The position numbers and the translations under genes are program-made. The notes beneath the pieces are model-generated. The model was not told the DNA's origin, made no database searches, and was given only the letters and a program-made list of their open reading frames with translations. A DNA stretch of 63,709 nt from a virus: positions 1 to 63,709 of the IMG/VR virus record IMGVR_UViG_3300050034_000204. One strand, 5' to 3'. Positions 8,542 to 52,805 of the stretch are shown here, piece by piece. Each line of letters begins with the position of its first letter. Within the stretch, counting starts at the first letter, position 1.

Positions 8542-9269
8542 TATTTTCCTCCAATGGCTCGTTTAAATAGCAAAATTCGTTGAAGCCATGATAATTTTTT
8601 TGATGATGGTTTAGTTATTAGTTCAGTGGTTGCCACGTGAATATCAGAAGTTATTCCAGCAGTATTGACTCCTATCTGCATTAGATAAGGATTATTAATT
8701 AGTTGTTGAAAGCTTTTTAAAGAATCATTGGTATTTTCATATATAGTTTCTTCTTGATTATCCAAAGTAGATAATCTTCTTTCTTCATGAGATATGATCA
8801 TATCGGCATGTACCGCATCTGATTTTACTGCTAATAAGGTTTTATTAGTTTCCTTCAAAGTACCATTTTCATTGTTTATAATATCAAAGGATTGTTGCAT
8901 ATTTCTATTTGTGCTAGATAAGATGCCATCATATCCATTAATATATGAAAATGAAGTATTCATGTTATGATTAGCATGAGCAACAAAAGAATTTCCGGAA
9001 TAAATTAATGCATTGATATTTGGTATTATATTCACTCTTATGTAATATGCTATATCTGCCAATTGCTCTGATGTTTCTGCCATAGAACCAGTAGACTTTT
9101 GAATATTTGAAACTGATTGACTTATTTGATTAAGGTCAGTTCTTGCTACTCTCATCGTATCATTTACTTCATTTATTGTTTTACAATATAACGTAATCAT
9201 TATCAACATCGAGATGCAGCATACGACTAATAAAATAATCTTCATTATTTCTTTTATTGTTTCAATCAT
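8541..9269 (-). CDS. Membrane-anchored coiled-coil protein, 242 aa
   Basis: Residues 10-30 form one transmembrane helix (IILLVVCCISMLIMITLY). About 150 residues of heptad-like sequence follow, rich in Asn, Ser and Gln (MRVARTDLNQISQSVSNIQ, TSEQLADIAYYIRVN), and the C-terminus is basic. Overall it resembles the long periplasmic or cytoplasmic stalk proteins of phage accessory regions; no family is recognised. Its start overlaps the GNAT-like gene by 4 nt and its stop overlaps the papain-like gene, so the three are co-translated. Confidence 0.7.
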   Translation of the reverse strand: MIETIKEIMKIILLVVCCISMLIMITLYCKTINEVNDTMRVARTDLNQISQSVSNIQKSTGSMAETSEQLADIAYYIRVNIIPNINALIYSGNSFVAHANHNMNTSFSYINGYDGILSSTNRNMQQSFDIINNENGTLKETNKTLLAVKSDAVHADMIISHEERRLSTLDNQEETIYENTNDSLKSFQQLINNPYLMQIGVNTAGITSDIHVATTELITKPSSKKLSWLQRILLFKRAIGGK

Positions 9270-9919
9270 TTTGCTACCGCCAATATTCTAATATTATTGC
9301 TTATATTTTCTTGCTCTATTTTATATCTTTCTAATTGCTTTGTAAGTTCTTGCTTTTTATTTTTATTATCTGTATTTTCTATTTCATCCTGAATATAATC
9401 AATTTCATCAGTTAAATTGTTATTCCAAATATCTTCATTGAACAAATCATTCTTATCTATTTGAAACAATTTATTGGACTTCATATCATATCCGAAGCAA
9501 TCAATTCCCTGAATTTTTACCAGTCGTTCCCAAATACTTCTTCCACCTTTTGTTTGCTCATTCCCAGAAAGTATCTTTAATTTTAAATTTTTTAATAAGA
9601 ATCGATACATCAAGATAGGAAGATTTAATCCTCTATAATTATCATTAACTGAAATCAAATCTATTTGCCATGTGTTAGTATTAATCCAGACAGCACTTAT
9701 TTCAACAATAAGTACTAATTGATCATTGGACTTATCTTTAAGACATATTATATTTTCTTTTATGACTTCTTCTAAGGAAAATACCTCGAAATTTTTTAAG
9801 TTTCCCCATGACTTTCTTCCATATAACTTAACAAAACGATGCCATCTTCTAACCATATCTGGAAATACTTTAGATCCAGAAGCAACATCATTTATCATTT
9901 CAATTTCATAAAGTCTCAT
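9266..9919 (-). CDS. GNAT-like protein with capsid-targeting-like N-terminus, 217 aa
   Basis: The mid region (SVNDNYRGLNLPILMYRFLL, then LSGNEQTKGGRSIWERLVK) has the order of an N-acetyltransferase fold: a beta strand, a YRG acetyl-CoA loop, a helix, then a Q-T-x-G-x-x-x-W motif seen in phage GNAT-like proteins. The last 60 residues form a charged coiled coil. The start is ATG 9919 (MRLYEIE), because the late box CATAAATA at 9925-9932 would place transcript +1 on this A; a longer frame to 9949 runs through the promoter and terminator. MRLYE-I fits a gp21-type site (L-x-E) and nearly copies the start of the ADP-ribosyltransferase-like gene at 21696. Confidence 0.6.
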   Translation of the reverse strand: MRLYEIEMINDVASGSKVFPDMVRRWHRFVKLYGRKSWGNLKNFEVFSLEEVIKENIICLKDKSNDQLVLIVEISAVWINTNTWQIDLISVNDNYRGLNLPILMYRFLLKNLKLKILSGNEQTKGGRSIWERLVKIQGIDCFGYDMKSNKLFQIDKNDLFNEDIWNNNLTDEIDYIQDEIENTDNKNKKQELTKQLERYKIEQENISNNIRILAVAK

Positions 9920-9992: not shown

Positions 9993-11027
9993 TTATAAAT
10001 TCATATCAATCTTGCAATAATAATCCTTGGCATTTGATGCAAACACATAGGCATCTTCACCAGTCAATTCAACCGTATCATCAATGCTTGATTTAATTTT
10101 GGCTGGATTATGAGCAATATAATTTATTCCGTTATCAGTATGGAGTCCCTGATATCCAACCAATATTGGATCAGTATCCTTTGCGTAAATATTTACATAA
10201 ATCTTAATGTTACCATTTATAGTTCCAGCAAATCTAATGGAAAACGGAGCACCAAGTGAGTTTTCTTCTTCGGTATTAGGTAAGAATGCCTTTGTGGAAT
10301 CATTTTGAATAATAGTTAGCGCCGCATTAGAAACTACAGCCCAGTTACCAACACCTCTACGTGTACGTTGTGCAATAAGATTAGAAGCACGGTTAATATC
10401 AATTATAAGGTCCGCATTATCATCTTTTTTGCTTGTGAAAGTATAGTCGGCAGTAGGAACCAAGTTTGAAATTTCTTGTAATAATTGCATGTCATGATGA
10501 ATAGCTAGTTCGGCAACGCCCGCGTCCATAAATTCATTTTCTAAATTCACTCCAGCGTGTATCATATTACTCATTTCTTGCAGATACTTGCTGACGGGAG
10601 AAAGTTGACAGTAAGTATCTGTGTGACGCTTGATTACAAATGGACAGCGAATGGCGGCTACTTGTATCTGTCCAGACTTTGCGATAGCATCACGACTATG
10701 CTCATCTTCTTCTGCCATCGGAATAGCGTCTGGAAGAGGATTAAATTTAACTTCCATAGCTGAAATCGATCCGGTCTTATCCTTACTAGCATCCACTCCG
10801 ACCAATTTATGTGCAGCTAGATGATTAAATGCAATCCCAGCAATAGGAATTATCATTCTTTTTACGTCTGGATTAAGTTGAGGAAGACCGGCACTAGTCA
10901 GTACATCATTTGTAATAATATCAGACCTAACATTGTCCAATACGGTTCCCAATGCACTGCTATTAACTGAATCTGCAATTAGTTGTGATTTAATTTTTTC
11001 CCAGTTAGAATTTGTTGCAATATCCAT
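9993..11027 (-). CDS. Major capsid protein, T4 gp23-like
   Basis: 344 aa. RRGVGNWAVVSNAALTIIQ and NIKIYVNIYAKDTDPILVGY match the order seen in T4 gp23 (a TRRGxGN segment, then an I-x-Y-V-D-x-Y-A segment and a VGYKG-like motif). It forms the HK97-fold capsid shell. At 344 residues it is much shorter than T4 gp23 (about 520). I see no obvious [L/I]-x-E cleavage site near the N-terminus (MDIATNSNWEKIKSQ), so it may lack a cleaved delta region. AGAGG precedes ATG 11027, a strong terminator follows, and an Sm-like protein gene precedes it by 6 nt. Confidence 0.85.
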   Translation of the reverse strand: MDIATNSNWEKIKSQLIADSVNSSALGTVLDNVRSDIITNDVLTSAGLPQLNPDVKRMIIPIAGIAFNHLAAHKLVGVDASKDKTGSISAMEVKFNPLPDAIPMAEEDEHSRDAIAKSGQIQVAAIRCPFVIKRHTDTYCQLSPVSKYLQEMSNMIHAGVNLENEFMDAGVAELAIHHDMQLLQEISNLVPTADYTFTSKKDDNADLIIDINRASNLIAQRTRRGVGNWAVVSNAALTIIQNDSTKAFLPNTEEENSLGAPFSIRFAGTINGNIKIYVNIYAKDTDPILVGYQGLHTDNGINYIAHNPAKIKSSIDDTVELTGEDAYVFASNAKDYYCKIDMNL

Positions 11028-14274: not shown

Positions 14275-15324
14275 TTATTTATGATTTTTCTGCGTTGCAT
14301 CTTCTTTAACAGATTTATACAAGTTATAAAAATATTCAATTATTAATTTCTTTTGAGTTCCAATTTTGCGATCAAATGCACCATCGCTACTTTGTTTTAT
14401 TATTTTCCAAATAGCCTTCCAAGACCTAGTTATATTTGTTTTAGAATCTGCAATTCCCATTGCATATACTCTCTTATATACTGCAAAAATATATGGTTTG
14501 CTTTTAGTAGAATATGATCCAAAATGCTTTTCTAGTTCGTCCAATAACTCTCTATTTATATTGGTATCTCCATAGGATGAAATAACTGTGTGCAAGTCTC
14601 TAAAATACTTACTATACTTGGACTTATCTAAATCAGTTTCCAACTCATCCTTTTTTAATCCAGCAACGAATCCCCCAACCATTCCTCCCAATAAAGAAGC
14701 CCCTCTTCTTTTATTTTTATGCAGGTTATCCATAAAAGATTTATATAATTCTTGGGCTTTCTCTTTATCGTCGTGTGACATTTGCTTATATAATTCAACA
14801 TTTGTTTTATCATCAAGTGGTTCATGCTCGAAATATTCTTGCATCCAATTCTTTCCATCATACACATAATAGGCATCTCCGACAGAAAGAAGATCATTTT
14901 TCTGGGGAGTTCCATCAAATAATTTTGTAAGAGTGTCTTGCCGGGATGAAAATTTTCCATCTTTACCACGAAGCCATTGATTACCAATTAAGGTATATTT
15001 AACTCCATTTCTAGTAACATATACCTTGGATATATTCTTTCCATTTCTTATGTTAACTCTTCCAGCTTCAAATAGAAAATACTTGTTGGTTAGCAAATGT
15101 GATAAAACATTTTCAATTAATGAAAAAATATGATTTTGCTTACTATATCCAGTTTTAAATGACTCAATATATTGGAAAGATTTCTTTTCTTCTTTTATCA
15201 TAGTCAGCATTGCCATTGTAATATCACTATTCAATTTTTCAACTGGAACAGTTATTCCATAAGTTTCTTGCAGAGTTTCATATGATTTAATATATGATTC
15301 TTTTTTAAACTCTTCCAATATCAT
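14275..15324 (-). CDS. Hypothetical protein with capsid-targeting-like N-terminus, 349 aa
   Basis: The N-terminus MILEEFKKE has an L-E-E site at position 5. The body is mainly helical and basic with a short beta motif (VTRNGVKYTLIGNQWLRGKDG) followed by VGDAYYVYDGKNWM. A Gly-rich hydrophobic stretch (GASLLGGMVGGFVAGL, about residues 210-225) could be a membrane-active or amphipathic segment. No family recognised. It overlaps the kinase-like gene by one base (ATAATG), so the two are translated as a pair. Confidence 0.6.
   Translation of the reverse strand: MILEEFKKESYIKSYETLQETYGITVPVEKLNSDITMAMLTMIKEEKKSFQYIESFKTGYSKQNHIFSLIENVLSHLLTNKYFLFEAGRVNIRNGKNISKVYVTRNGVKYTLIGNQWLRGKDGKFSSRQDTLTKLFDGTPQKNDLLSVGDAYYVYDGKNWMQEYFEHEPLDDKTNVELYKQMSHDDKEKAQELYKSFMDNLHKNKRRGASLLGGMVGGFVAGLKKDELETDLDKSKYSKYFRDLHTVISSYGDTNINRELLDELEKHFGSYSTKSKPYIFAVYKRVYAMGIADSKTNITRSWKAIWKIIKQSSDGAFDRKIGTQKKLIIEYFYNLYKSVKEDATQKNHK
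14276..14283 (-). promoter_or_regulatory. Late promoter box CATAAATA
   Basis: Lies 16 nt before ATG 14259 and partly inside the end of the upstream gene; AGGAG lies in the leader. Confidence 0.55.
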
Positions 15325-16022
15325 TATATTTCTCCCTCAAAGTAAAATGGATCAATGAAAACAACAGTTCCATCTTTTCGTTGCATAATATTTCCGCTAT
15401 TCATAACATCCAAAGATGCTCCCGTCTTTTTTGAGAATTCTTTTAATTGTGTAATAGCCTCAAAAAAACTACGAGGAAGCTTCTTAAAAACAAGCTCTTC
15501 CCGATCACCTAATGGTATATAAGGAGCAAGATCCTGCAATTCTTCAAATGATTCCGCACGGAAAGAGTCGGTATTTCCTGATAATAATACCTCAATGATA
15601 TTTCTAATTTGTCTATTTTTCATTGAAGGAATCGAATATAATTTTTCAATTAAGTAACAATAATATTTTTCTTTTCCAATTCGTATAATTTTAGCATTAC
15701 CTATAACTGGAAAATGAATGTTATGGGATAACCTAGAAAATAATGCAAATTTAGCAAAGGCGCTGTCAAGAGAACGATTAATTTTTAAAATATAATCATA
15801 TCCATCTTTTTCATACGCATTAGAAAAGTGACCGATTCCAACCCTATTCCAACCATTTTTTATTAAGATATTATCGGCTTTGTAATTATTATTTGTGTCA
15901 TCATAATGATCTTTAAACAACGCAACATCATTATTAAAATTATTATCTTTATAAAATGAGTCTATGCCTTGCTCAGAATCGGAGGACCATTGTGCGGTAT
16001 TTGTTAATTCATCTAATATCAT
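15324..16022 (-). CDS. Protein-kinase-like protein with capsid-targeting-like N-terminus, 232 aa
   Basis: Short protein-kinase fold: a nucleotide-loop-like IGHFSNAYE (63-71), a strand with Lys80 (YILKI), a helix with AFAKF, then LDVMNSGNIMQRKDGTVVF (204-222), resembling the catalytic loop (Asp205, Asn211), and IDPF (Asp224) in place of DFG. The Asp-to-Asn spacing is one residue longer than in typical kinases, so activity is uncertain. It most resembles the small kinase-like proteins of large phages. The N-terminus MILDE-L matches an L-x-E cleavage pattern. Probably a kinase acting on a host or phage protein; it could be inactive. Confidence 0.55.
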   Translation of the reverse strand: MILDELTNTAQWSSDSEQGIDSFYKDNNFNNDVALFKDHYDDTNNNYKADNILIKNGWNRVGIGHFSNAYEKDGYDYILKINRSLDSAFAKFALFSRLSHNIHFPVIGNAKIIRIGKEKYYCYLIEKLYSIPSMKNRQIRNIIEVLLSGNTDSFRAESFEELQDLAPYIPLGDREELVFKKLPRSFFEAITQLKEFSKKTGASLDVMNSGNIMQRKDGTVVFIDPFYFEGEI

Positions 16023-20303: not shown

Positions 20304-21233
20304 ATGGTAGATAAGAATAAATTATGGGTAGAAAAATATCGTCCTTCATCAGTTGATGATTTTGTATTCACTGATGAACAACAACAAGCACAAATTACTA
20401 ACTGGATTAAAAATCAAGATTGTGGAAATATTTTATTTTATGGTACTGCTGGCACAGGAAAGACGAGCCTTGCACTTTTACTAGTTAAATGCCTTAATAT
20501 TGATCCATATGATTTTTTAAAGATCAATGCCAGCAAGGAACGTAATATTGATGTGATGCGAGAAAAAGTTACCAACTTTGCATCCACTATTCCATTTGGT
20601 AAACTCAAAGTAGTTCTCTTAGATGAAGCTGATGGCCTTACTCCAGATGCGCAAAACTCGTTAAAAGGAATGATTGAGCAATATACTTCATGCCGATGGA
20701 TTCTAACCGCCAATGCCAAAAATAGAATTATTCCTCCCATTCATAGCCGCACCCAATCAATGGAAATTTCTAGGTTAGATCATACCGAGTATTTGGCAAG
20801 AGTTGCAAAAATTTTGATTGATGAAAATATTGATTTTGAATTGGAAACTCTAGAATTATATACTTCTGCATATTGGCCGGATCTTCGTAAATGTATTAAT
20901 TCTTTACAAACAAATTGCATTGATGGTAAATTATTAAGTCCTACTAAGTCTTCGGTGGCTACAAGTGATTATAGGTTAGAAGCTATTGACTTATTCAAGC
21001 AAGGGAAATTTCGAGAAGCAAGAAGCAAAATTGCTTCGCAAATTCGGCCAGAAGATGCTGAAGAGTTTTTTAGATTCTTATATGATAATTTGGATTTGCT
21101 TGGGGATACCGATGAGCAAAAAGATGGCGCTATTTTGATTATTCGCAAAGGATTGGTTCAAATACCGCTGGCATCTGATGTAGAAATTTTAATATCAGCG
21201 GTACTTACTGAATTAATGCAAAATAGAGGATAA
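20304..21233 (+). CDS. Sliding-clamp loader ATPase, T4 gp44-like
   Basis: 309 aa. AAA+ ATPase that opens the polymerase clamp. It shows LWVEKYRPSSVDDFV at the N-terminus, Walker A GTAGTGKT (47-54), Walker B LLDEAD (105-110), a sensor-like WILTANAKN, and the SRT Arg finger (148-150). Length is close to T4 gp44 (319). The C-terminal collar-like domain is present. AAGGAT precedes ATG 20304. The gp62-like partner is not clearly seen; the small gene after it is too short to be one. Confidence 0.9.
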   Translation: MVDKNKLWVEKYRPSSVDDFVFTDEQQQAQITNWIKNQDCGNILFYGTAGTGKTSLALLLVKCLNIDPYDFLKINASKERNIDVMREKVTNFASTIPFGKLKVVLLDEADGLTPDAQNSLKGMIEQYTSCRWILTANAKNRIIPPIHSRTQSMEISRLDHTEYLARVAKILIDENIDFELETLELYTSAYWPDLRKCINSLQTNCIDGKLLSPTKSSVATSDYRLEAIDLFKQGKFREARSKIASQIRPEDAEEFFRFLYDNLDLLGDTDEQKDGAILIIRKGLVQIPLASDVEILISAVLTELMQNRG

Positions 21234-21657: not shown

Positions 21658-21658
21658 A

Positions 21659-21688
21659 TTTATCCCATGATCGAGATCATGGGATAAA
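21659..21688 (+). terminator. Terminator hairpin, overlapping a late promoter
   Basis: Perfect 14-bp stem (TTTATCCCATGATC / GATCATGGGATAAA) with a 2-nt loop. Its right arm supplies the GATAAA of the late box at 21683-21690. It separates the clamp-loader transcript from the next gene. Confidence 0.75.
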
Positions 21689-21690
21689 TA
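21683..21690 (+). promoter_or_regulatory. Late promoter box GATAAATA, 5 nt before ATG
   Basis: Places +1 on the A of ATG 21696; leaderless mRNA predicted. Box plus first codons match those of the 9919 gene at 27 of 34 bases. Confidence 0.7.
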
Positions 21691-21695
21691 TTTCT

Positions 21696-22271
21696 ATGAG
21701 ACTATATGAACTAGAATCTTCAACATTTACTTTATGGCATGGCGGAAAAGATCTACAATATAATTATAGAGAATTTCAACCTAGCGGGAAAGGACGATGG
21801 GAATACGGTCCGGGAATATACTTAACCACTCATTATGATACGGCTCGTAAGTATTCGTCTGGCGGCAAAACAACTTACAAAGTTGTCATTAAAAAGGGAA
21901 CGGATATTAGCAAGGTTAATATTCCTTTGGATACCGCCATTGATTTTGTTAAACGATATGCAATCAAAAAATTTCAGAAATCAATAATAGAAGACCTCCG
22001 AGGAATTGCAGAAAAAAGAAATGGTTCGGTTTATATTGTTGCTGTTTCAAATCTATTATTTAATTCAAATGCAATTTCTTCAGCTAATACGGTTGCATTA
22101 CGAAAGTTTTTGGTGGATAATGGTGTTGATTATGAAATTGTTACTCATTTTGGCGGACGAGATGAAACGGTTGTGGTAATATATAATCCAAAAATAATAT
22201 TATCGGTGACCGCTGTGAAAGCAAAAGACGTGCAATCTTCGGAATGGGAACAGCCAACAAATTTATCTTGA
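21696..22271 (+). CDS. ADP-ribosyltransferase-like protein with capsid-targeting-like N-terminus, 191 aa
   Basis: The fold pattern is that of an ADP-ribosyltransferase: a strand with LWHGG (13-17), GPGIYLTTHYDTARKYS (38-54) with Tyr42 in the ART tyrosine region, and GGRDETVVVIYNP (about 153-165). The H-Y class of ART/PARP-like proteins is the closest; the third catalytic residue is not certain. The N-terminus MRLYE-L has a gp21-type site, as does T4 Alt (MELITE-L), which is an ART packaged and injected with the DNA. It may modify host proteins such as RNA polymerase right after infection. Leaderless start predicted, insulated by a terminator. Confidence 0.65.
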   Translation: MRLYELESSTFTLWHGGKDLQYNYREFQPSGKGRWEYGPGIYLTTHYDTARKYSSGGKTTYKVVIKKGTDISKVNIPLDTAIDFVKRYAIKKFQKSIIEDLRGIAEKRNGSVYIVAVSNLLFNSNAISSANTVALRKFLVDNGVDYEIVTHFGGRDETVVVIYNPKIILSVTAVKAKDVQSSEWEQPTNLS

Positions 22272-22892: not shown

Positions 22893-22923
22893 GAAAAGCC
22901 CCGCATATTATGCGGGGCTTTTC
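22893..22923. terminator. Bidirectional terminator
   Basis: GAAAAGCCCCGCA / TGCGGGGCTTTTC, a 13-bp stem with a 5-nt loop, between converging genes ending at 22874 (+) and 22924 (-). Confidence 0.9.
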
Positions 22924-51653: not shown

Positions 51654-52805
51654 ATGAAGATACGAGAATTATTTGAATACAAAGCAAGTCCAAATACCTT
51701 ATCTAGAATTGCGTCTCACATAGATGCAACGGTTGGAATGGAATTCGAAATGGTAGTACCTAATAAAACACTAATTAATATAACTAAAAGTTTTTCAGAA
51801 TATATTGGAAAAGAGGTTTATAGTTCTTCTACTTATCATGGCGGACCAAGAAAAGAAAATGCATATACCATTGAGCCAGATTCTTCTATTATTCCAACAA
51901 AAGAATATAGCAGTGGATTGGAATTTATAAGTCCGCCTATGCCATTTATTGAGATGATAGAAGATTTGAAAAAGACTATTGCATGGGCAAAAAAGAATGG
52001 ATGTTCAACTAACGAATCCACCGGACTTCATATGAATATTTCAATTAATGGTAAATCCATGGAATCTCTTAATTATATTAAATTGATATTGTTGCTGGGT
52101 GATCAATATGTATTGGAAAAATTTGAGAGGTCTATTAATGCCGCGTGCGAATCATCATATAAAAAAATATCAAAAATAATGAATATTATTTCCACTGATA
52201 AAGATAGAAGGGAAGCATTACTTAATCATGTTCGGGCAGATTTTGATCATGCAATGAATACTTGGGGAAAAGGAATGTTTTCATCAAAATCTATCGATAA
52301 ATATCAAAGCGTTCATCTTAGAGATAATTATGTGGAATTTGGAGGTCCGGGTGGGGATTGGTTGAAGATGGAGAATAAATCAATAATAACTCTTTCTAGA
52401 TTTATTGTTTGTTTAGATGCTGCCTGTGATCCACAAAAATATAGAAGAGAGTTTATGAAAAAATGGGGGGCCTTTGTTGAAAAGTCATTACCAACCACCT
52501 CGCTTGGAAATATTGTTGCTAGTTATTTAAGCGGAAATATAACAAAAGAAGAAGCAGTCTATAAATTAAAAGGGACCGAATCTCCTTCTTTGGGAATATA
52601 TGGGGTGAGATTTAATAATGGAAATAACATGGCAACGTATTATGATTATACTGATTCGGTATTTGGAATGGGACGTATATGGATGGCACTATCTGTTGCA
52701 AAAGATATGTATAAACAATATAAGGACCAATATCCGGATGCTGAGTTAGTAAAGAAAAATTCAGATGGAACGATATCTTCGGTAAAGGTGGATAATAATG
52801 TCTAG
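51654..52805 (+). CDS. Amidoligase-like enzyme with capsid-targeting-like N-terminus, 383 aa
   Basis: The motifs of the putative amidoligase family (COOH-NH2 ligase, glutamine-synthetase-like fold) are seen in order: VGMEFEM (27-33), YTIEPDSSIIP (71-81), GLEFISPP (88-95), and TNESTGLHMNIS (119-130). Such enzymes join a carboxyl group to an amine using ATP. The N-terminus MKIRE-L has an I-x-E site like the other proteins of the targeting set. It lies between gp6-like and gp14-like virion genes, so it is co-expressed with the virion. It may modify host proteins, cell wall peptides or a small molecule. AGGAT is present 8 nt before ATG. Its stop overlaps the next start by 8 nt. Confidence 0.65.
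   Translation: MKIRELFEYKASPNTLSRIASHIDATVGMEFEMVVPNKTLINITKSFSEYIGKEVYSSSTYHGGPRKENAYTIEPDSSIIPTKEYSSGLEFISPPMPFIEMIEDLKKTIAWAKKNGCSTNESTGLHMNISINGKSMESLNYIKLILLLGDQYVLEKFERSINAACESSYKKISKIMNIISTDKDRREALLNHVRADFDHAMNTWGKGMFSSKSIDKYQSVHLRDNYVEFGGPGGDWLKMENKSIITLSRFIVCLDAACDPQKYRREFMKKWGAFVEKSLPTTSLGNIVASYLSGNITKEEAVYKLKGTESPSLGIYGVRFNNGNNMATYYDYTDSVFGMGRIWMALSVAKDMYKQYKDQYPDAELVKKNSDGTISSVKVDNNV

What the first reader, a model, noticed from the sequence alone, without database searches (positions are those of the whole stretch)
21696..22271. Possible Alt analogue: a short ADP-ribosyltransferase-like protein
T4 Alt is a packaged ADP-ribosyltransferase of 682 residues that modifies RNA polymerase. 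Here a 191-residue ART-like protein has a start peptide of the same kind. It could be a minimal packaged ART with other targets. The H-Y signature suggests the PARP/KptA side of the superfamily rather than the R-S-E type of Alt.
Basis: partly seen in the sequence, partly recalled or inferred. Interest (0 to 1): 0.6.

Follow-up and report, generated by a model that had tools for sequence, protein, structure and literature searches.

The report
Packaged-type ADP-ribosyltransferase of a jumbo phage
A 191-residue protein of a giant T4-related phage has the fold of enzymes that attach ADP-ribose to other molecules, and it starts with a short cleavable tag of the kind that sends T4 proteins into the phage head, so it is probably carried in the virus particle and injected to disarm or reprogram the host.

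Summary
The ORF (21696-22271, 191 aa) is real. Alone it only hints at an ADP-ribosyltransferase (PF18760 19.4 bits, below cut-off). I found a family: nine metagenomic relatives and homologues in XaC1, CBB, GAP32, BF, Munch and Atu_ph07. Eight of nine aligned members match ART-PolyVal (best E 1.6e-7). An alignment-based AlphaFold2 model (pLDDT 82.6, pTM 0.79; residues 1-7 disordered) is ART-like; apart from an unverified cyanophage ejection protein, its best solved matches are ART folds, led by AcrIF11. Putative triad: H15, Y42, D156/E157.

The start peptide is also real. 15 of 16 leaders contain the gp21 cleavage motif [L/I]-x-E before the ART domain (shuffling P about 1e-7). Every large related record carries the gp21-type prohead protease, and most ART genes have a T4-type late promoter. 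In PA5oct a start pattern taken from these leaders marks 7 of 89 virion-detected proteins and 0 of 147 others.

Best reading: a late-made, head-packaged, injected mono-ADP-ribosyltransferase that works like Alt but belongs to the H-Y-E/ART-PolyVal side. Packaging and catalysis are inferred; CBB's homologue was not in its published virion proteome. Head-packaged phage ARTs are a known concept; the single-domain, leader-bearing form is a new variant.

The parts
21696..22271 (+). ART-PolyVal-like ADP-ribosyltransferase gene, 191 aa
21696..21710 (+). Leader M1-E5 (MRLYE), predicted capsid-targeting propeptide; predicted gp21-type cut after L3-Y4-E5. Disordered in the model. Gap-free match to LFE in L107
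   Evidence: motif from PMC9026906
21732..21746 (+). Motif I, L13-W14-H15-G16-G17 (H15 putative NAD-binding His)
   Evidence: invariant in A6
21807..21827 (+). Motif II, G38-P-G-I-Y42-L-T (Y42)
   Evidence: G38, P39, G40, Y42, L43, T44 invariant in A6
22161..22190 (+). Motif III, D156-E157-T-V-V-V-I-Y-N-P; acidic pair just before strand 158-162
   Evidence: cf. D146/E147 of AcrIF11Pae2 (PMC12421852)
21683..21690 (+). T4-type late promoter box GATAAATA, 5 nt before the ATG, so the predicted mRNA start is the A of the ATG
   Evidence: T4 box at -13 to -6 (PMC1524935)
21658..21689 (+). 14-bp hairpin, terminator-like, overlapping the promoter; probably ends the upstream unit
   Evidence: -18.2 kcal/mol, z -4.6
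20304..21233 (+). Clamp loader (gp44-like), left syntenic neighbour
   Evidence: 52% identical to PA5oct; same neighbour in L134/L131
22924..23679 (-). PhoH-like ATPase, right syntenic neighbour
   Evidence: ORF; PhoH also next to the ART gene in L134/L131 and near the clamp loader in PA5oct
9266..9919 (-). Gene with the same leader (MRLYEIE) and the same promoter-N5-ATG arrangement; weak PHROG matches only
15324..16022 (-). Leader-bearing (MILDEL) kinase-like protein
   Evidence: phrog_15752 E 9e-10; Kinase-PolyVal below cut-off
14275..15324 (-). Leader-bearing (MILEEF) protein of unknown family
51654..52805 (+). Leader-bearing (MKIREL) amidoligase-like protein
   Evidence: PF12224 42.6 bits
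2889..4040 (-). GP88-family protein starting MRWNEVIAE; a GP88 homologue also sits next to an ART gene in L098
   Evidence: PF17338 1.2e-31
9993..11027 (-). gp23-type major capsid protein, places the phage in the T4 superfamily
   Evidence: PF07068 6.6e-21

Best explanation
The gene encodes a single-domain mono-ADP-ribosyltransferase of the ART-PolyVal/PARP-like (H-Y-E) type. It is transcribed late from a T4-type late promoter. The first residues (MRLYE) target the protein into the prohead core; the gp21-type prohead protease then cuts after L3-Y4-E5, leaving the mature enzyme inside the head. It is injected with the DNA and acts at the start of infection, using NAD+ to ADP-ribosylate a host target (transcription machinery or a defence complex; target unknown). 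Shown by computation: family relationship, predicted fold, conserved leader, late promoter, protease in related records. Inferred: packaging, cleavage, catalysis, injection, target.
For: ART: 8 of 9 family members match PF18760, XaC1 and L098 homologues well above cut-off; model pLDDT 82.6, pTM 0.79; PDB matches AcrIF11 (6kyf), cholix, diphtheria toxin, RES, Tpt1, PARP14; viral matches to named ART-PolyVal proteins, E down to 3.9e-8 (top row, E 8.9e-9, unnamed). H15 and Y42 invariant; the D156/E157 pair at least partly acidic in 8 of 9. Leader: [L/I]-x-E in 15 of 16, P 9e-8, 1e-6 without near-duplicates. Start pattern M[RKI][LIYF]x[DEQ][LIVFM] in 7 of 89 virion-detected and 0 of 147 other PA5oct proteins, P 9e-4; in CBB both genes whose annotated start carries it (CBB_299, CBB_321) are virion or structural proteins. 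gp21 protease in 13 of 17 records, including every one above 64 kb; the four without are fragments of 20-64 kb, the window among them. Late boxes upstream of ART genes in XaC1, CBB, GAP32, BF, Atu_ph07, L125, L128 and L140. No relative found in about 85,000 bacterial and archaeal genomes.
Against: CBB_455, the CBB homologue, is not among the 55 proteins detected in CBB virions. The loose [L/I]-x-E motif by itself is not enriched in PA5oct virion proteins (23/89 vs 41/147); only the fuller start pattern is, and I had seen four of its seven hits before fixing it. P1' is Leu in the window, unlike the G/S/T/N/D of most relatives. L137 has VNE, and motif III lacks an acidic residue in L140. PDB matches have low TM-scores and E>0.001. 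The window itself holds no gp21 gene. No NAD activity is known for any member.
Confidence: 0.68

Rival explanations
1. An ART made late but not packaged: it acts inside the producing cell (late host take-over, superinfection exclusion, lysis timing). The leader is not a targeting signal.
For: CBB homologue not detected in virions; [L/I]-x-E is common by chance.
Against: Leader motif kept while surrounding leader sequence diverges; disordered in the model; start pattern associated with virion proteins in PA5oct and CBB; protease present in every large related record.
Confidence: 0.22
2. A packaged or early-acting anti-defence ART like AcrIF11, whose target is a CRISPR or other defence complex rather than the transcription machinery. 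This is a version of the best explanation with a specific target.
For: AcrIF11 (6kyf) is the best PDB match of verified ART activity, and AcrIF11Pae2 uses H20/Y46 and D146/E147 (PMC12421852), a pattern close to H15/Y42/D156-E157.
Against: Identity in the fold match is 16%; no anti-CRISPR context and no host known.
Confidence: 0.3
3. A catalytically dead ART fold used as a structural or binding protein of the head.
For: Motif III is variable (DE, ND-S, AE, SSH) and no activity is known.
Against: H and Y are invariant and at least one acidic residue is kept in 8 of 9 members; mono-ARTs tolerate change at the third position (own knowledge).
Confidence: 0.1
4. A toxin of a toxin-antitoxin pair, carried as a moron gene.
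For: ART folds such as RES are toxins of toxin-antitoxin systems.
Against: No relative in about 85,000 bacterial and archaeal genomes; no conserved small partner gene: neighbours differ between L107, L131/L134 and L132.
Confidence: 0.04

Closest known systems
T4 Alt
   Same: Phage ART with a short N-terminal propeptide (7 residues for Alt, PMC9026906) ending in the gp21 motif; T4-superfamily phage; packaged and injected (inferred here).
ART-PolyVal (PF18760), ADP-ribosyltransferases of polyvalent proteins
   Same: Same domain family by sequence (8 of 9 members match) and by fold (viral structure matches).
   Different: Single domain with its own head-targeting leader rather than one module of a giant injected protein; the window protein itself scores below the curated cut-off.
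AcrIF11 anti-CRISPR ADP-ribosyltransferase
   Same: Similar fold and an H-Y-D/E active-site pattern; phage-encoded.
   Different: 16% identity in the structural alignment; no sequence match; no capsid leader known to me in AcrIF11; target here unknown.
T4 internal proteins IPI-IPIII (capsid targeting sequence)
   Same: Short N-terminal targeting and cleavage signal.
   Different: Cargo is an enzyme; leader sequences differ from those of the T4 internal proteins apart from the cleavage motif.

Membership tests
ADP-ribosyltransferase superfamily | ART fold | tested here: met
   Alignment-based AlphaFold2 model and Foldseek matches
ADP-ribosyltransferase superfamily | Conserved NAD-site motifs (H-Y-E type) | tested here: met
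   H15 and Y42 invariant; D156/E157 mostly acidic. Geometry in three dimensions not inspected
ADP-ribosyltransferase superfamily | NAD-dependent transferase activity | not testable with these tools
   Needs a biochemical assay
ART-PolyVal (PF18760) | Score over the curated cut-off | tested here: not met
   Window protein 19.4 bits against 31.2; XaC1 53 and L098 53.8 bits pass, so it is filed as a divergent relative, not as a member by that criterion
T4 Alt family | Sequence match to Alt/Mod (R-S-E type) families | tested here: not met
   No such family in Pfam or PHROG scans up to E=10
T4-type packaged internal protein | N-terminal propeptide ending in [L/I]-x-E | tested here: met
   L3-Y4-E5; conserved in relatives
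T4-type packaged internal protein | Phage encodes the gp21 prohead protease | tested here: inconclusive
   Not in this 63.7-kb fragment; present in 13 of 17 records searched, including all above 64 kb
T4-type packaged internal protein | Late expression | tested here: met
   Late-promoter box at 21683-21690 and upstream of most homologues; expression itself not measured
T4-type packaged internal protein | Present in purified virions, cut after the [L/I]-x-E motif | not testable with these tools
   CBB homologue not listed in the CBB virion proteome
KptA/Tpt1 RNA 2'-phosphotransferase | Sequence match to the family | tested here: not met
   No match in Pfam; Tpt1 only a weak fold match (rank 47)

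The most novel reading that the evidence does not exclude
T4-superfamily jumbo phages use a general cargo cassette: a late promoter placed 4-5 nt before the start codon (leaderless mRNA), a 5-15-residue head-targeting and cleavage leader of the form M[RKI][LIYF]x[DEQ][LIVFM]...[L/I]xE, and an exchangeable effector domain (ART, GNAT, kinase-like, amidoligase-like, GP88). The start peptide would then predict packaged effectors from sequence alone.
Probability: 0.45. Interest if true: 0.72.

Novelty: new variant of a known kind. Interest (0 to 1): 0.52.

Why it matters
Packaged phage ARTs were proposed to be widespread, mostly from domain fusions and gene neighbourhood (PMC9503650; its text mentions no capsid-targeting or prohead-protease signal). 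A conserved, short, cleavable start peptide gives a direct, testable way to recognise single-domain injected effectors in jumbo phages, where most genes are unannotated, and several homologues lie in cultured phages (XaC1, CBB, GAP32, BF, Munch, Atu_ph07).

Tried and rejected
Single-sequence structure prediction: pLDDT 39, unusable. Single-protein scans of viral contigs and phage records: no relatives; an alignment with GPGIY-type blocks was needed. PDB sequence search with A6: only chance matches; with A3: a designed protein first, then PARP10, PARP4 and cholix, all weak. The loose [L/I]-x-E motif as a marker of virion proteins: rejected, not enriched. Alt family and KptA membership: rejected. 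Bacterial relatives: none by genome-contig scan. Family PF01129: no match, but nothing rang in the controls either, so uninformative. Sigma-70 promoter scan: no excess over shuffles. Text search for a paper on cyanophage A4 to verify the 9k3a_B match: nothing found.

Full report
Setting. The window is a 63.7-kb virus record. A gp23-type major capsid protein (9993-11027, minus strand; PF07068 E 6.6e-21) and a clamp loader 52% identical to that of Pseudomonas phage PA5oct place it in the T4 superfamily, near the jumbo phages PA5oct, XaC1, 121Q, CBB and Atu_ph07. It is probably a fragment: no gp21 prohead protease gene is in it.

Observation. The ORF at 21696-22271 encodes 191 residues, with no internal Met. 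On its own it gives only hints: ART-PolyVal 19.4 bits (cut-off 31.2) and DUF3990 17.8 bits, a weak PHROG match, no tblastn match in 50,697 phage records. Taken alone this would not have settled the case.

Relatives. Searching related records one genome at a time gave a homologue in XaC1 (30% identity, E 2.7e-5) which is itself a clear ART-PolyVal protein (53 bits), and independent ART-PolyVal matches in a 264-kb contig (L098) and in Atu_ph07 (the last below cut-off). XaC1's protein leads to 41-46% identical proteins in CBB, GAP32, BF, Munch and relatives. Alignment-guided scans of viral contigs gave nine closer relatives (L107, L125, L126/L127 as one, L128, L129, L130, L137, L139, L140; L139 with its frame interrupted), two of them on contigs of 457 and 578 kb; those aligned in A6 are 27-54% identical to the window protein over their length. 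None was found in about 85,000 bacterial and archaeal genomes. Eight of nine aligned members match PF18760, best E 1.6e-7.

Fold and active site. With the nine-sequence alignment A6 the AlphaFold2 model reaches pLDDT 82.6 and pTM 0.79; residues 1-7 are below 50. The best PDB match is a protein of the cyanophage A4 pre-ejectosome (9k3a_B), whose ART nature I could not verify; next is 6kyf, which is AcrIF11, an anti-CRISPR ART (PMC12421852); then cholix, diphtheria toxin, RES, Tpt1 and PARP14, with rare spurious rows. E-values are above 0.001 and TM-scores mostly 0.3-0.5, so this supports the superfamily rather than a close relation. In the viral library 21 matches have E<=0.001; the best (8.9e-9) has no name in the tables, and several of the next are named ART-PolyVal proteins. 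H15 (LWHGG) and Y42 (GPGIYLT) are invariant; D156/E157 lies directly before strand 158-162 and is at least partly acidic in eight of nine members. AcrIF11Pae2 uses H20/Y46 and D146/E147.

Leader. gp21 of T4 cuts after L/I-x-E; propeptides of virion proteins run from 7 residues (Alt) to 65 (gp23), and the first 10 residues of IPIII suffice for targeting (PMC9026906). The window protein begins MRLYE|LESS. In L107 the gap-free counterpart of LYE is LFE. Across 16 leaders 15 have [L/I]-x-E before the ART motif I; shuffling residues within each leader gives 5.4 expected and P 9e-8, or 1e-6 after dropping near-duplicates. These sequences are related, so the P-value overstates independence, but the leader residues around the motif are diverged.

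Independent test of the leader. PA5oct's record marks proteins detected by mass spectrometry in virions. I compared 89 of these with 147 undetected proteins copied from the same tables. The loose motif is not enriched (23/89 vs 41/147). The fuller start pattern taken from the ART and window leaders, M[RKI][LIYF]x[DEQ][LIVFM], is found in 7/89 and 0/147 (P 9e-4). I had seen four of the seven before fixing the pattern. As a replicate I scanned CBB: two annotated gene starts carry it, CBB_299 (detected in CBB virions, PMC5259590 Table 4) and CBB_321 (annotated structural protein, not in Table 4). In the window five of 57 genes carry it, against an internal frequency of 0.14%. Against packaging: CBB_455, the CBB ART itself, is not in that Table 4.

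Expression. CBB's ATAAATA motif is read as its late promoter (PMC5259590), and the T4 box TATAAATA spans -13 to -6 (PMC1524935). Such a box lies upstream of ART genes in XaC1, CBB, GAP32, BF and Atu_ph07, L125 and L128 and L140. In the window it is 21683-21690, five bases before the ATG, so the predicted transcript begins at the start codon. Nine TAAATA-N5-ATG sites exist in the window against 3.3 expected, and eight start ORFs of 124 residues or more. A stable hairpin (21658-21689) overlaps the box.

Context. L131 and L134 keep the arrangement clamp loader, ART, PhoH, as in the window; in L134 the gp21 protease and scaffold are within 3 kb of the ART gene. The protease is present in 13 of 17 records searched, including all above 64 kb. 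A relative contig (G040) carries further leader-bearing short proteins, one GNAT-like and one with a partial ART-PolyVal match, which suggests a set of packaged effectors.

Conclusion. It works like Alt, in that it is most likely a head-packaged, injected ADP-ribosyltransferase, but it is not a member of the Alt family. It is a divergent, single-domain relative of ART-PolyVal. The idea of packaged ARTs in jumbo phages is already published (PMC9503650). What is new here is the stand-alone form with a conserved capsid-targeting leader. Fold and family: well supported. Packaging: probable. Catalysis and target: inferred.

Noticed in passing
window 9919-, 11818+, 16729-, 21696+, 32838-, 40868-, 48217+, 54012+: TAAATA exactly 5 nt before the ATG of eight genes; with T4 geometry the late mRNAs would be leaderless. 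Similar N4-N5 spacing precedes leader-bearing genes in L110, L132, L136 and L137.
   Followed up: partly
window 2889-4040-, 9266-9919-, 14275-15324-, 15324-16022-, 51654-52805+: Other proteins with similar start peptides: GP88 family, unknown, unknown, kinase-like, amidoligase-like; candidates for a packaged effector set.
   Followed up: partly
L109 1-2435 (relative contig G040): Run of short leader-bearing proteins, including a GNAT and partial ART-like sequences, one cut by the contig end.
   Followed up: partly
L130 1528-2565: ART homologue with a long C-terminal extension of unknown function.
   Followed up: no
L139 5983-6222: ART homologue whose frame is interrupted; homology continues to 6553 in the tblastn match. 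Could be a sequencing error or a decaying gene.
   Followed up: no
window 3-2387-: Ribonucleotide reductase-like protein with an intein-like insertion (CVDKDE ... SHNC), judged by eye only.
   Followed up: no
window 22893-22923: Strong bidirectional terminator-like hairpin between the 182-aa gene and the convergent PhoH gene.
   Followed up: no
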